Of a stretch of 64,000 nt of DNA, positions 25,887 to 55,686 are shown one piece after another. The notes beneath the pieces were generated by a model that was not told the DNA's origin, searched no databases, and saw nothing but the letters and a program-made list of their open reading frames with translations. Both the position numbers and the translations under genes were made by a program. How positions within the stretch are numbered: the first letter of the stretch is position 1; every line of letters begins with the position of its first letter. The stretch lies in assembly GCF_004570385.1 (NCBI RefSeq), contig NZ_SPQL01000005.1, positions 62,001-126,000 of the forward strand. Reading direction: 5' to 3'. This stretch comes from Blastococcus sp. CT_GayMR19. Lineage in GTDB: Bacteria; Actinomycetota; Actinomycetes; Mycobacteriales; Geodermatophilaceae.

Positions 25887-25967
25887 GTGAGCGAGCTTGC
25901 GAGCGAACCGATGAGCACAGCAGCACCGCGAACGCGGCCGACGAGCGCCAGCGAGGAGAGCAAGTGA
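25887..25967 (+). repeat. 26-codon junction cassette (MIRU-like), copy A, before icd
   Basis: GTGAGC opens an in-frame run of 26 codons ([13 protein letters not shown], then [13 protein letters not shown]) that ends in TGA overlapping the icd start as GTGA. The unit carries the icd Shine-Dalgarno (GAGGAG, 5 bases before GTG 25964). By eye 74 of 81 bases match the copy at 54084-54164. Confidence 0.85.
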
Positions 25968-27178
25968 GCAAGATCAAGGTCGAGGGCACCGTCGTCGAGC
26001 TCGACGGCGACGAGATGACCCGGATCATCTGGCAGTTCATCAAGGACCAGTTGATCCTCCCGTACCTCGACGTCAACCTCGAGTACTACGACCTGGGCAT
26101 CGAGCACCGGGACGCCACCGACGACCAGGTGACGGTCGACGCCGCCAACGCCATCAAGCAGCACGGCGTCGGCGTCAAGTGCGCCACGATCACGCCGGAC
26201 GAGGCGCGGGTCGAGGAGTTCGGCCTGAAGAAGATGTGGCGCTCGCCCAACGGGACGATCCGCAACATCCTCGGCGGCGTCATCTTCCGCGAGCCGATCA
26301 TCATGCAGAACGTGCCGCGGCTCGTGCCGGGCTGGACGAAGCCGATCATCGTCGGCCGCCACGCCTTCGGTGACCAGTACCGCGCGACCGACTTCCGGTT
26401 CCCCTCCGCGGGCACCCTGACGGTGACGTTCACGCCGTCCGACGGCTCCGAGCCGATCGAGCACGAGGTCTTCCAGGCGCCCGGTGCCGGCATCTCGCTG
26501 TCCATGTACAACCTGGACCAGTCGATCCGCGACTTCGCCCAGGCGTCGCTGAACTACGGCCTGGACCGCGGCTACCCGGTCTACCTGTCCACGAAGAACA
26601 CGATCCTCAAGGCCTACGACGGCCGCTTCAAGGACATCTTCGAAGAGGTCTTCGAGGCCGAGTTCAAGGACAAGTTCGACGCGGCCGGCATCACCTACGA
26701 GCACCGGCTGATCGACGACATGGTCGCCGCCTCGCTCAAGTGGGAGGGCGGCTACGTCTGGGCATGCAAGAACTACGACGGTGACGTGCAGTCCGACACC
26801 GTTGCGCAGGGGTTCGGCTCGCTGGGCCTGATGACGTCGGTGCTCGCGACCCCGGACGGCAAGACCGTCGAGGCCGAGGCCGCCCACGGCACGGTCACCC
26901 GCCACTTCCGGCAGCACCAGCAGGGCAAGGAGACGTCGACCAACCCGATCGCGTCGATCTTCGCCTGGACGCGGGGCCTGGCCCACCGCGGCAAGCTCGA
27001 CGGCACCCCCGAGGTGACGAAGTTCGCCGAGACCCTCGAGAAGGTCTGCATCGACACCGTCGAGGGCGGTCAGATGACCAAGGACCTCGCGCTGCTCATC
27101 TCCAAGGACAGTCCGTGGCTCACCACCCAGGACTTCCTGGCGGCCATCGACACCAACCTCCAGAAGGCCATGGCCTGA
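25964..27178 (+). CDS. icd: NADP-dependent isocitrate dehydrogenase (homodimeric type)
   Basis: A 404-residue isocitrate dehydrogenase of the eukaryote-like homodimeric class. Metal and substrate residues are visible: [10 protein letters not shown] near the N-terminus, SPNGTIRN with the substrate Ser, [22 protein letters not shown] for the metal Asp, and [13 protein letters not shown] in the NADP region. It produces 2-oxoglutarate and NADPH. The GTG start overlaps the stop of a 26-codon cassette that also supplies its ribosome-binding site, so its translation is probably coupled to that short frame. Confidence 0.97.
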
Positions 27179-39796: not shown

Positions 39797-39800
<4 letters not shown>

Positions 39801-39877
39801 GCGAGCGGGTGAGCTCCCGGGGTGGAGCCCGGCGCCGGTTCATCCGTCCGACGAGCGCCGGCGAGGAGACCTCATGA
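39797..39877 (+). repeat. 26-codon junction cassette (MIRU-like), copy C, between ABC genes
   Basis: ATG overlaps the ATPase stop (ATGA). The frame runs 26 codons (MSERVSSRGGARRR, then FIRPTSAGEETS) and its TGA overlaps the permease ATG. It supplies GAGGAG 5 bases before that ATG. The C-terminal RPTSA-EE matches copies A and B2; the middle is different. Confidence 0.8.
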
Positions 39878-53217: not shown

Positions 53218-54087
53218 TCAGACGCCCATCGGGTGCCAGACCGTCTTCGTCTCGAGGAACGGGGTCATCCGGGACAGGCCGGGGTCGGCCGTCCAGTCCG
53301 GCTCCGTCGCCGGTGGGCGGACGACGCGCTTGACCGTGCCGGCGGCCTCCCGCTCGAACTCCATCGCCCGTCCGGCGGGCGCACCGGTCAGGTCGATGGC
53401 GTCGACGTCGGCGTGCTCGGCCAGCCAGGTGCCCAGCTCCGCGGCGTCGCCGGTGAGCAGGTTGACCACCCCGCCGGGGACGTCGCTGGTCGCGAGCACC
53501 TCGCCGAGGGTCACCGCGGGCAGCGGGCGATCCTTCGACGTCACGACGACGCCGGTGTTGCCGGTCGCCAGGACGGGGGCCAGCACGCTGACCAGCCCGA
53601 GCAGCGACGACTCCTGCGGCGCGAGGACGGCGACGACACCGGTCGGCTCCGGCATCGAGAAGTCGAAGTACGGGCCGGCAACCGGGTTGGCCCCGCCGAG
53701 GACGGCGGCCAGCTTGTCGGTCCACCCGGCGTACCAGACCCACCGGTCGATGGCGGCGTCGACGGCCGCGCGGGCCTTCGAGCCCGAGAGCCCCTCGCCG
53801 GTGGCCACCTCGTCGCAGAACTGGGCGTGCCGGCCCTCCATCACCTCGGCCACGCGGTACAGCACCTGGCCGCGGTTGTAGGCGGTCATGCCCGACCACT
53901 TCCCGAAGGCGCCTCGGGCGGCGACCACGGCGTCCCGGGCGTCCTTGCGCGAGGCCCAGGCGGCGTTGGCCAGGAAGTGACCGCGGGGATCGGTGACCTC
54001 GTAGGTGCGTCCGGACTCCGAGCGCGGGAACGCCCCGTTGACGTAGAGCTTGTAGGTCTTGCGGACGGCGAGGCGGTCCGAGCTCAC
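53218..54087 (-). CDS. Shortened aldehyde dehydrogenase-like protein without catalytic Cys
   Basis: A 289-residue ALDH-fold protein, about 190 residues shorter than a normal enzyme. It has the N-terminal part (YKLYVNGAFPRSESGRTYEV, AFGKWSGMTAYNRGQ) and the NAD-binding half (LAPVLATGNTGVVVTSKD, GGVVNLLTGD) but lacks the catalytic domain with the nucleophilic Cys and Glu. Paired with the full ALDH upstream and deoC, this order is conserved in actinobacteria. It resembles the inactive second domain of ALDH16 proteins and probably forms a complex with its neighbour. GTG 54087 overlaps a cassette stop. Confidence 0.85.
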   Translation of the reverse strand: MSSDRLAVRKTYKLYVNGAFPRSESGRTYEVTDPRGHFLANAAWASRKDARDAVVAARGAFGKWSGMTAYNRGQVLYRVAEVMEGRHAQFCDEVATGEGLSGSKARAAVDAAIDRWVWYAGWTDKLAAVLGGANPVAGPYFDFSMPEPTGVVAVLAPQESSLLGLVSVLAPVLATGNTGVVVTSKDRPLPAVTLGEVLATSDVPGGVVNLLTGDAAELGTWLAEHADVDAIDLTGAPAGRAMEFEREAAGTVKRVVRPPATEPDWTADPGLSRMTPFLETKTVWHPMGV

Positions 54088-54164
54088 TTGTCCTCCTCGC
54101 TAGCGCTCGTCGGCTGCGTTCGCAGGGCTGCTGTGCTCATTGGTTCGCTCGCAAGCTCGCTCAC
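54084..54164 (-). repeat. 26-codon junction cassette (MIRU-like), copy B2
   Basis: GTGAGC (from 54164) opens 26 codons ([14 protein letters not shown], then RTQPTSASEEDK) ending in TGA that overlaps the shortened-ALDH GTG. It provides GAGGAG before that start. Its own GTG overlaps the stop of copy B1. Confidence 0.85.
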
Positions 54165-54241
54165 TGCACAGCGCCTCTCTTGATGGGTCGCTTCCGCGGC
54201 CGCTCCGCTCCTCGCTCGCTGGCGCTGGCTGCGATGCTCAC
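54161..54241 (-). repeat. 26-codon junction cassette (MIRU-like), copy B1, divergent
   Basis: GTGAGC (from 54241) overlaps the stop of the full ALDH gene (GTGA). The frame runs exactly 26 codons (VSIAASASERGAE, then RPRKRPIKRGAVQ) and its TGA overlaps the GTG of copy B2. Length and end structure match the other copies; the internal sequence is different and basic. Confidence 0.75.
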
Positions 54242-55686
54242 GACCTGTCAGCTCCCTTCAGATAACCCGTCAGCCCGTGGCGGCCGCCCTCGCGGCCGTA
54301 CCCGGACTGCTTGTAGCCGCCGAAGGGCGACGTCGGGTCGAACTTGTTGAACGTGTTGGCCCACACGACGCCGGCGCGGAGCTGGTTCGCGATCTTGAGG
54401 ATCCGCGAGCCCTTCTCCGTCCAGATGCCGGCCGAGAGCCCGTAGGTGGTGTTGTTCGCCTTGGCCACGGCCTCGTCGGGAGTACGGAAGGTCATGACCG
54501 ACAGGACGGGCCCGAACACCTCGTCGCGGGCGATGCGGTGGGCGGGGGAGACCTGGGTGAACACGGTCGGCTTGAACCAGAAGCCCTTCTCGGGCAGCAC
54601 GCAGTCCGGCTGCCAGCGCTGGGCGCCCTCGGCGTCCCCGATGTCTACCAGCTCCCGGATGCGCGCCAGTTGCAGGTGAGAGTTGATCGCGCCGAGGTCG
54701 GTGTTCTTGTCCAGCGGGTCGCCGACGCGCAGCGTGCTGATCCGCCGCTGCAGGCTCGCGATGACCTCGTCGTGCACGTTCTCCTGCACGAGCAGCCGGG
54801 AGCCGGCGCAGCAGACGTGCCCCTGGTTGAAGAAGATGCCCTGCACGATGCCCTCGACGGCCTGGTCGATCGCGGCGTCGTCGAAGACGATGTTGGCGGC
54901 CTTGCCGCCGAGCTCGAGGGTGAGCGACTTGCGAGTGCCGGCGACCGCGCGGGCGATCGACTTGCCCACCTCGGTGGAGCCGGTGAACGCCACCTTGTCG
55001 ACGTCGCCGTGCTCGACGACGGCCCGGCCGGTCTCGCCGGCGCCGGTGACGATGTTGACGACGCCGGGCGGCAGGTCGGCCTGCTGGCAGATCTCGGCGA
55101 ACAGCAGCGCGGTCAGCGGCGTGGTCTCGGCCGGCTTGAGGACGACGGTGTTGCCGGTGGCCAGCGCGGGCGCGATCTTCCACGCGAGCATCAGCATCGG
55201 GAAGTTCCAGGGGATGACCTGACCCGCCACGCCGAGCGGGCGCGGTCCCGGGCCGAGGCCCGCGAAGTCGAGCTTGTCGGCCCAGCCCGCGTGGTAGAAG
55301 AAGTGCGCCGCCGCCAGGGGGATGTCGACGTCCCGTGACTCGCGGATCGGCTTGCCGTTGTCCAGCGACTCGAGGACGGCGAACTCGCGGGCGCGCTCCT
55401 GCAGCAGCCGGGCGATGCGGAACAGGTACTTCCCGCGGTCGGCCGGGCGCATCGGGCCCCAGGTGCGGGTGAAGGCCCGGCGGGCGGCCGCGACGGCGCG
55501 GTCGACGTCGGCCGCGCTGCCGCTGGAGACCTCGGTGAGCACCTCCTCGGTGGCCGGGTTGACCGTCTTGAACGGCTCGCCGGTGCCGTCGACGAACACG
55601 CCGTCGATGAACAGGCCGTAGGACGGCCTGATGTCGACGATCGACCGCGACTCGGGCGCCGGCGCGTACTCGAACAGGCTGGTCAT
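54238..55686 (-). CDS. Aldehyde dehydrogenase
   Basis: A 482-residue NAD(P)-dependent aldehyde dehydrogenase with all active-site features: PWNFPMLM (Asn), LELGGKAANIVF (Glu), FNQGHVCCAGSR (nucleophilic Cys), FTGSTEVGK and EVFGPVLSV. It sits directly downstream of deoC (3 bases between), so acetaldehyde released by DeoC is the likely substrate. Its product, acetate or acetyl units, can enter central metabolism. The stop overlaps the first of two tandem cassettes. Confidence 0.94.
   Translation of the reverse strand: MTSLFEYAPAPESRSIVDIRPSYGLFIDGVFVDGTGEPFKTVNPATEEVLTEVSSGSAADVDRAVAAARRAFTRTWGPMRPADRGKYLFRIARLLQERAREFAVLESLDNGKPIRESRDVDIPLAAAHFFYHAGWADKLDFAGLGPGPRPLGVAGQVIPWNFPMLMLAWKIAPALATGNTVVLKPAETTPLTALLFAEICQQADLPPGVVNIVTGAGETGRAVVEHGDVDKVAFTGSTEVGKSIARAVAGTRKSLTLELGGKAANIVFDDAAIDQAVEGIVQGIFFNQGHVCCAGSRLLVQENVHDEVIASLQRRISTLRVGDPLDKNTDLGAINSHLQLARIRELVDIGDAEGAQRWQPDCVLPEKGFWFKPTVFTQVSPAHRIARDEVFGPVLSVMTFRTPDEAVAKANNTTYGLSAGIWTEKGSRILKIANQLRAGVVWANTFNKFDPTSPFGGYKQSGYGREGGRHGLTGYLKGADRS

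What the first reader, a model, noticed from the sequence alone, without database searches (positions are those of the whole stretch)
25887..25967. A mobile 26-codon cassette that inserts at start/stop junctions (MIRU-like), copy A at icd
Four copies in this window share one architecture: ATGAGC or GTGAGC start, exactly 26 sense codons, a stop that overlaps the downstream gene's start by GTGA or ATGA, and in three copies a start that overlaps the stop of the preceding frame. The step is 77 bp. Copy A (before icd) and copy B2 (before the shortened ALDH) match at 74 of 81 bases although the genes are unrelated, so the unit itself moved. Mycobacterial MIRUs are known to have this organisation (77-101 bp, no dyad symmetry, small frame overlapping flanking start and stop codons). 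Here the unit also brings the downstream Shine-Dalgarno (GAGGAG, 5 bases before the start). Inference: a self-contained translational-coupling element that spreads through operon junctions without breaking frames in this actinobacterial group.
Basis: partly seen in the sequence, partly recalled or inferred. Interest (0 to 1): 0.88.

Follow-up and report, generated by a model that had tools for sequence, protein, structure and literature searches.

The report
Start-codon repeat matched to insertion site
A 77-base piece of DNA has spread into dozens of gene start sites in a soil actinobacterium and its relatives without breaking the genes; it resembles a repeat known from mycobacteria, but carries internal stretches that match the place where each copy sits, which is not yet explained.

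Summary
The unit is a dispersed repeat: 53 places (E<=0.01) in the window's genome, and copies in 19 of 19 same-family genomes searched. Empty sites show an exact 77-bp insertion after the DTGA at a gene start. The 26-codon frame is intact in 157 of 163 copies whose start overlaps an upstream stop, against 29 of 38 others, which supports a translational relay. It resembles mycobacterial MIRUs; sequence membership is not shown. Two things look new. It has two covarying hairpins whose arms cross the element/host borders (5-18: 194 of 207, expected 83; 43-82: 190 of 207, expected 93), including three host bases. Bases 37-39 repeat those host bases directly. The match of base 37 fades with divergence; hairpin pairs mostly persist. 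The mobilising enzyme is unknown.

The parts
25887..25967 (+). Copy A, 81-nt unit before icd: host GTGA (25887-25890) plus 77 inserted bases (25891-25967); 26-codon frame GTG..TGA
   Evidence: 29 of 29 other icd loci read carry the empty site
25887..25892 (+). Hairpin 1, 5' arm (GTGAGC): host GTGA plus the first two element bases; holds the start codon of the 26-codon frame
   Evidence: pairs 1-22 to 6-17; 5-18 Watson-Crick in 194 of 207 copies, expected 83; in copy A bases 3-4 face G/A mismatches
25903..25909 (+). Hairpin 1, 3' arm (g1, bases 17-23), complementary to the left border
25923..25925 (+). Bases 37-39 (m, GCA in copy A): direct copy of the three host bases after the right GTGA (GCA)
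   Evidence: 37=82 in 186, 38=83 in 185, 39=84 in 116 of 207 copies
25927..25938 (+). Hairpin 2, 5' arm (g2, bases 41-52), complementary to the right border including three host bases
   Evidence: 43-82 in 190, 42-83 in 181, 41-84 in 151 of 207; in copy A 41-84 is a mismatch
25939..25958 (+). Conserved loop of hairpin 2 (CGACGAGCGCCAGCGAGGAG, bases 53-72), ending in the Shine-Dalgarno GAGGAG (25953-25958)
   Evidence: 18 of 20 columns at 90-100% over 207 copies, the others (53, 64) 87% and 71%
25959..25970 (+). Hairpin 2, 3' arm (bases 73-84): variable element end, GTGA with the icd start codon, then host bases GCA
   Evidence: 50-75, 49-76, 48-77 and 52-73 covary; 51-74 does not clearly (68 of 2000 shuffles reach it)
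25964..27178 (+). icd, NADP-dependent isocitrate dehydrogenase; its start codon lies in the right border
   Evidence: NF006156, 773 bits
39797..39877 (+). Copy C, diverged, between an ABC transporter ATPase frame and a permease frame (best models below their cut-offs); ATGA at both borders; bases 41-47 GGTTCAT are the exact complement of ATGAACC
54084..54164 (-). Copy B2, before the second, short aldehyde dehydrogenase frame

Best explanation
It is a MIRU-like mobile element without a transposase gene, found in Geodermatophilaceae and Pseudonocardiaceae. It inserts 77 bp directly after the DTGA of a gene start. The left DTGA is host sequence; the right GTGA comes with the element and becomes the gene's new start (shown at the empty sites read). 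It keeps the operon running as a translational relay: the upstream ribosome stops at the left TGA and restarts on the 26-codon frame, whose stop overlaps the downstream start behind the element's own GAGGAG (inferred, supported by frame conservation). Each start codon lies in the arm of a short hairpin that crosses the border into host sequence; translation of the previous frame would open it, so that the downstream start depends on upstream translation (covariation shown, function inferred). The pairing with the three host bases is kept by compensating changes (inferred). Bases 37-39 are a copy of those host bases made at insertion that later decays (inferred; significant for base 37 only).
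For: 53 places in the genome and 3-79 in each of 18 same-family relatives. Named copies in Geodermatophilus, Blastococcus, Modestobacter, Pseudonocardia, Sciscionella and Amycolatopsis. Empty sites; L356/L357 show ATGA kept on the left and GTGA added on the right. Downstream frame starts at the right GTG in 163 of 192 testable copies. Frame intact 157 of 163 against 29 of 38, Fisher p=2.7e-4. Pairs 0-23, 5-18, 41-84, 42-83, 43-82, 47-78, 48-77, 49-76, 50-75 and 52-73 reached by 0 of 2000 shuffles each; 40-85, 39-86, -1/24 and -2/25 at or below expectation. Of 22 copies whose left TGA has changed, 6 keep six perfect pairs in hairpin 1 (such as GCGACC/GGTCGC, GAGACC/GGTCTC, GTGCGC/GCGCAC). 41-84 and 42-83 do not fade with divergence (p=0.85, 0.20) while 37=82 does (rho -0.29, p=2e-5). 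A review describes the same coupling idea for MIRUs (PMC12548453, passages read).
Against: The hairpins are not strong as free RNA: copy A folds no better than shuffles (z +0.80); hairpin 2 is in the predicted fold of 99 of 207 copies, hairpin 1 of 68; mean z -0.57 over 42 copies against single-base shuffles. Pairs 3-20, 4-19, 6-17, 44-81, 45-80 and 46-79 show no excess over shuffles. 43-82 fades marginally (p=0.06), 0-23 fades (p=0.011); 38=83 and 39=84 do not fade significantly (p=0.15, 0.28), and no test reaches p=0.05 with distance to the nearest copy. Of the 22 copies with a changed left TGA, 16 do not keep a perfect hairpin 1. In the first 25 copies g2 also fits the left border and g1 the right border better than shuffles, though less (39 and 38 of 50 against 32.6 and 32.1). 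Bases 37-39 differ together with host bases between some orthologous sites (L093/L255, L128/L109), which a passive relic would not do unless those are separate insertions. The copies are related, so shuffles overstate significance; within the one genome (37 copies) 43-82 (35 against 15.9) and 41-84 (24 against 14.0) still hold.
Confidence: 0.6

Rival explanations
1. Guide-directed or target-copying insertion: segments g1, m and g2 are address segments that recognise both sides (and, with m and g2, both strands) of the insertion site by base pairing, or are written from the target during insertion, in the spirit of IS200/IS605 guides or bridge RNAs.
For: Host bases are represented twice, as complement (41-43) and as direct copy (37-39). 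When g2 mismatches the host base, m still equals it in 9 of 17 (base 82) and 16 of 26 (base 83) copies. In the least diverged 18 copies 43-82 and 37=82 are 100% and 0-23 is 89%. Two close paralogues in this genome (L001, L003) differ at 2 of 45 non-guide columns but carry different 37-50 blocks, each fitting its own site at bases 82-83, though g2 fits neither at base 84.
Against: Some hairpin pairs look kept by compensating changes after insertion. No Y1 transposase (PF01797) and no reverse transcriptase (PF00078) match in the genome; IS110-type genes (PF02371) are absent from 4 of 13 same-genus genomes, all copy-bearing. Perfect complement to GTGA in g2 is the minority form (base 44 is T in 46 of 207). 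m equals the host at base 84 in only 14 of 56 copies where g2 mismatches it.
Confidence: 0.25
2. Neutral palindrome correction: replication template switching makes the two arms of each inverted repeat alike, with no function of the pairing.
For: Could keep g2 equal to the complement of host bases and extend to m without selection (inference; not tested).
Against: It should also remove the frequent mismatches opposite GTGA at bases 44-45, and it does not explain the sharp limits at bases 0 and 84 or frame conservation.
Confidence: 0.07
3. A gene-specific leader or chance likeness, not a mobile element.
For: None found.
Against: 53 places in the genome and exact empty sites.
Confidence: 0.01

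Closest known systems
Mycobacterial interspersed repetitive units (MIRU)
   Same: Short dispersed repeats said to insert at start codons, with a small frame coupled to the next gene by a -4 overlap (PMC12548453, passages). In loci fetched here: DTGA borders, tandem copies, and a loop core with blocks in the same order as ours; 29 of 20000 shuffles and 2 of 20000 random window 19-mers align as well.
   Different: The recalled MIRU core was found in one genus only and in none of 51 same-family genomes. MIRU loci read here show, by eye, one hairpin, and two bases after the left DTGA repeat those after the right one (9 of 16 usable). The present unit has a further 5' hairpin module, and its copy of the host bases sits at 37-39.
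IS200/IS605 family and REP/RAYT elements (recalled)
   Same: Short guide segments inside the element pair with the cleavage sites at its borders; insertion behind a fixed short sequence.
   Different: No Y1 transposase match in this genome; start-codon specificity and a relay frame are not features of those elements (recalled).
IS110 family with bridge RNA (recalled)
   Same: Target bases represented in complementary and direct form in a short element sequence.
   Different: The unit is only 77 bp with no gene beyond the 26-codon frame; IS110-type genes are missing in 4 of 13 same-genus genomes, all of which hold the element.
Enterobacterial small mobile repeats RU-1/2/3, PMC2759123
   Same: Small non-autonomous repeats that can carry reading frames.
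   Different: TA duplications at target sites and stable stem loops there; here DTGA gene starts (passages read).

Membership tests
MIRU | Short repeat at many operon junctions, in the orientation of the genes | tested here: met
   163 of 192 testable copies precede a gene start on the same strand
MIRU | Insertion at DTGA of a start codon | tested here: met
MIRU | Small frame overlapping the flanking stop and start | tested here: met
   157 of 163 intact where an upstream stop overlaps; 29 of 38 elsewhere
MIRU | Duplication of the DTGA target (recalled) | tested here: not met
   the first base of DTGA differs between left and right in 29 of 266 copies; L356/L357 show that the right GTGA comes with the element
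   two covarying hairpins; arms GCGCCG/CGGCGC are visible by eye in many of the mycobacterial loci too
MIRU | Sequence homology to the mycobacterial consensus | tested here: inconclusive
   recalled 30-base MIRU core in 18 of 298 genomes, all of one genus, 0 of 51 same-family genomes; 0 matches to model R1 in G025 of that genus; the loop core aligns better than shuffles
IS200/IS605 or RAYT-mobilised element | Y1 transposase in the genome | tested here: not met
   PF01797: 0 matches at E<=0.001 in the window's genome (42 contigs)
IS110 bridge-RNA element | IS110-type transposase accompanies the element | tested here: not met
   2 matches in own genome, but none in G001, G002, G007 and G011, which hold 7, 25, 12 and 14 copies; G002 and G011 are at least 99% complete

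The most novel reading that the evidence does not exclude
A 77-bp mobile element that carries, or writes into itself at each insertion, the address of its own site: host bases beside the junction appear inside it once directly and once as complement, so that both borders are spanned by guide segments. This would be base-pair-directed, start-codon-specific insertion by an element without a transposase gene of its own.
Probability: 0.22. Interest if true: 0.92.

Novelty: new variant of a known kind. Interest (0 to 1): 0.66.

Why it matters
MIRUs are widely used as typing markers, yet how they move is not known (recalled). A similar family with many copies in soil actinobacteria, showing border-crossing pairing to the host site, offers over 200 natural examples for working out how such elements choose start codons. 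It is also a case where a mobile element seems to keep host expression by a translational relay, and where selection on that relay can be read from sequence.

Tried and rejected
Searches for the mobiliser: Y1 transposase (0 in own genome; relatives not searched), reverse transcriptase (0 in own genome, 4 of 13 same-genus genomes), IS110-type (9 of 13 same-genus genomes); none is consistently present. No Rfam family matched the element in 5 loci (the two weak hits are microRNA models elsewhere in L013). No match of copy A in the phage or plasmid collections. A search for copies of the second module alone among weak hits gave only degenerate copies or chance (10 of the 13 hits with E from 0.01 to 0.1 were read). 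RNA stability as proof of the hairpins was rejected. The host match against nearest-copy distance showed no trend at p<0.05, so the decay result rests on distance to consensus only. A clean split between shared ancestry and separate insertion at orthologous sites was not reached (both outputs, like, were cut in view). A guess that bases 37-39 form a small hairpin with 41-43 was dropped, because pair 39-41 would leave a one-base loop. Paper searches listed no paper that I recognised as describing this family; the library lacks most subscription papers, and I did not see the original MIRU papers.

Full report
Observation. The sequence at 25887-25967 is as described: GTG, 26 sense codons, a stop overlapping the icd start by GTGA, GAGGAG five bases before that start. 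A and B2 agree at 74 of 81 bases. BLAST of 83 bases against the window's own genome gave 40 places. A sequence-only model (R1) built from 26 copies gave 53 places at E<=0.01 and 66 at E<=0.1. Three lie in the window: A (25887-25967), C (39797-39877) and B2 (54164-54084, minus).

Distribution. R1 found copies in 19 of 19 same-family genomes searched: own 53, 15 same-genus relatives 4-79, three genomes of other genera 3-9. In 12 genomes of other families it gave only weak matches (5 of 12, best E 6e-4). The window's genus is probably Blastococcus, because same-genus relative G008 has contigs of the same length (269471 and 323382) as a named Blastococcus record (inference). Copy A found no match in the phage or plasmid collections.

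Mobility and insertion site. Joined flanks of those of the first 199 copies with 200 bases on both sides found orthologous places without the element. The icd junction was read in 30 loci: own is occupied, the other 29 are empty and start GTGAGC (24), ATGAGC (3) or GTGGCG (2) (counted, where the own locus is the 25th GTGAGC). So copy A sits after the GTGA of the native icd start codon; no upstream stop is involved. Against a purely private insertion: L117 and L146 carry units of 79 and 82 nt at the same junction, and the last 39 nt of the L117 unit are identical to copy A. At the ALDH junction, G008 has the empty ...CCCACTCATGA|GCG and G009 has ...CCCACTCATGA|AC..GTGA|GTG. The left DTGA there is host and the right GTGA comes with the element. 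In L030/L055 bases 5-6 are element (CC) and bases 82-84 (GCG) are as in the empty site. Borders are 4|5 and 81|82.

Reading frame. Of the first 199 copies, the downstream frame starts at the right GTG in 163 of 192 testable, and an upstream frame ends at the left TGA in 142 of 194. Of 29 rows printed there as lacking a long downstream frame, 22 have a 26-codon frame instead, that is, a next unit. In the enlarged set of 266 copies, counting only those with left DTGA and right TGA intact, at least 180 bases upstream, and not directly behind another unit (201 copies), the frame is intact in 157 of 163 with an overlapping upstream stop and in 29 of 38 without, p=2.7e-4. In L225 the unit has shrunk to 48 nt with both overlaps kept. 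This supports a translational relay in which the frame matters where it receives ribosomes.

Border-crossing pairing. Columns are numbered from the left GTGA as 1-4. In 25 copies of this genome, g1 (17-22) fits the left border and g2 (42-47) the right border at the two variable bases (49 of 50 and 46 of 50; shuffles 34.5 and 31.1); the crossed combinations also exceed shuffles, less strongly (g2-left 39 against 32.6, g1-right 38 against 32.1). In 207 distinct 81-nt copies: 5-18 194 (expected 83), 43-82 190 (93), 42-83 181 (153), 41-84 151 (91), 0-23 111 (75), 47-78 190 (173), 48-77 171 (151), 49-76 90 (50), 50-75 165 (104), 52-73 144 (112), each reached by 0 of 2000 shuffles. No clear excess at 51-74 (68 of 2000), and none at 3-20, 4-19, 6-17, 44-81, 45-80, 46-79, several of which hardly vary. 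Pairs just outside, 40-85, 39-86, -1/24 and -2/25, are at or below expectation. Bases 82-84 and 0 are host. Where the right tetranucleotide is ATGA, base 47 is T in 10 of 16 copies. In this genome alone (37 copies) 43-82 is 35 against 15.9, 41-84 24 against 14.0, 42-83 35 against 31.4, 50-75 27 against 19.2; 0-23 is weak, 14 against 10.7, reached by 188 of 5000 shuffles. The arms facing GTGA are either TC (Watson-Crick) or carry mismatches, often G/A; the perfect form is the minority in g2. The loops 7-16 and 53-72 are at 90% or more in each column except 11, 12, 53 and 64.

The direct copy. Bases 37-39 equal host bases 82-84 in 186, 185 and 116 of 207 copies. When g2 and host disagree, base 37 follows the host in 9 and g2 in 6 of 17 cases, base 38 in 16 and 9 of 26, base 39 in 14 and 17 of 56. 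So the direct copy does not merely follow g2. With distance from the consensus over 43 non-guide columns, 37=82 fades (rho -0.29, p=2e-5) and 0-23 fades (p=0.011); 38=83 and 39=84 do not fade significantly (p=0.15, 0.28); 42-83 (p=0.20), 41-84 (p=0.85) and the internal pairs do not, and 43-82 marginally (p=0.06). The sum of seven host matches fades (rho -0.25, p=3e-4), the sum of six internal pairs does not (p=0.41). Using distance to the nearest copy no test reaches p=0.05. My reading: the direct copy is made at insertion, like the doubled NN of mycobacterial units (left equals right in 9 of 16 usable loci, shuffles mean 2.0, largest 8), while the hairpin pairs are kept. Kept pairing also shows where the left TGA has changed: L110, L193, L259, L169, L174 and L117, 6 of 22 such copies, keep six perfect pairs; the other 16 do not. 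Against this reading, orthologous sites L093/L255 and L128/L109 differ together in host bases, g2 and the direct copy, which fits separate insertions or a maintained role of 37-39; I could not decide.

RNA strength. Copy A does not fold better than shuffles. Over 207 copies hairpin 1 (4 or more pairs) is in 68 and hairpin 2 (5 or more pairs) in 99 predicted folds; swapping flanks between copies once lowers the mean pairing probability of hairpin 2 from 0.37 to 0.25 and of hairpin 1 from 0.32 to 0.26. Hence the pairing is supported by covariation, not by energy.

Comparison with MIRU. A review says that MIRUs appear mobile, insert at start codons and couple by a -4 overlap (PMC12548453, passages read). 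The recalled 30-base MIRU core (up to 3 mismatches) was found in 18 of 298 genomes of the order, all one genus, which I take to be Mycobacterium, and in none of 51 same-family genomes. The fetched loci show, by eye and mostly, arms GCGCCG/CGGCGC around a loop whose blocks run in the order of our loop; 29 of 20000 shuffles and 2 of 20000 random window 19-mers align as well. So it works like a MIRU and may be a distant cousin, but DTGA duplication and lack of symmetry are not met and sequence membership is not shown.

Machinery. No Y1 transposase or reverse transcriptase match in the genome; IS110-type genes are missing in 4 of 13 same-genus genomes that hold the element. The enzyme is unknown.

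Verdict. A real, mobile, start-codon-specific element with the marks of a translational relay, a new variant of the MIRU kind, with an unexplained match between its interior and its own insertion site.

Noticed in passing
   Followed up: partly
L195, L197, L203, L204, L211, L212, L216, L218, L220-L222, between mdh and icd: Another palindrome-rich repeat (GAAGGACCCC...CGCTCGCA...GGGGCC) stands, by eye, in the mdh-icd spacer of several relatives.
   Followed up: no
L225 (G009), directly before the matched downstream gene: The element has shrunk to 48 nt by an in-frame internal deletion with both GTGA overlaps kept.
   Followed up: no
L126 and L135, right border: Right border is CTGATGG instead of DTGA, yet the segment GCCC in the g2 place is complementary to the host bases GGGC beyond it.
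   Followed up: no
window 53218-54087 and 54238-55686 (minus): Two adjacent aldehyde dehydrogenase frames, the second short (289 aa, model matches to the N-terminal half only); the end of the first frame precedes the second in the relatives read (by eye).
   Followed up: no
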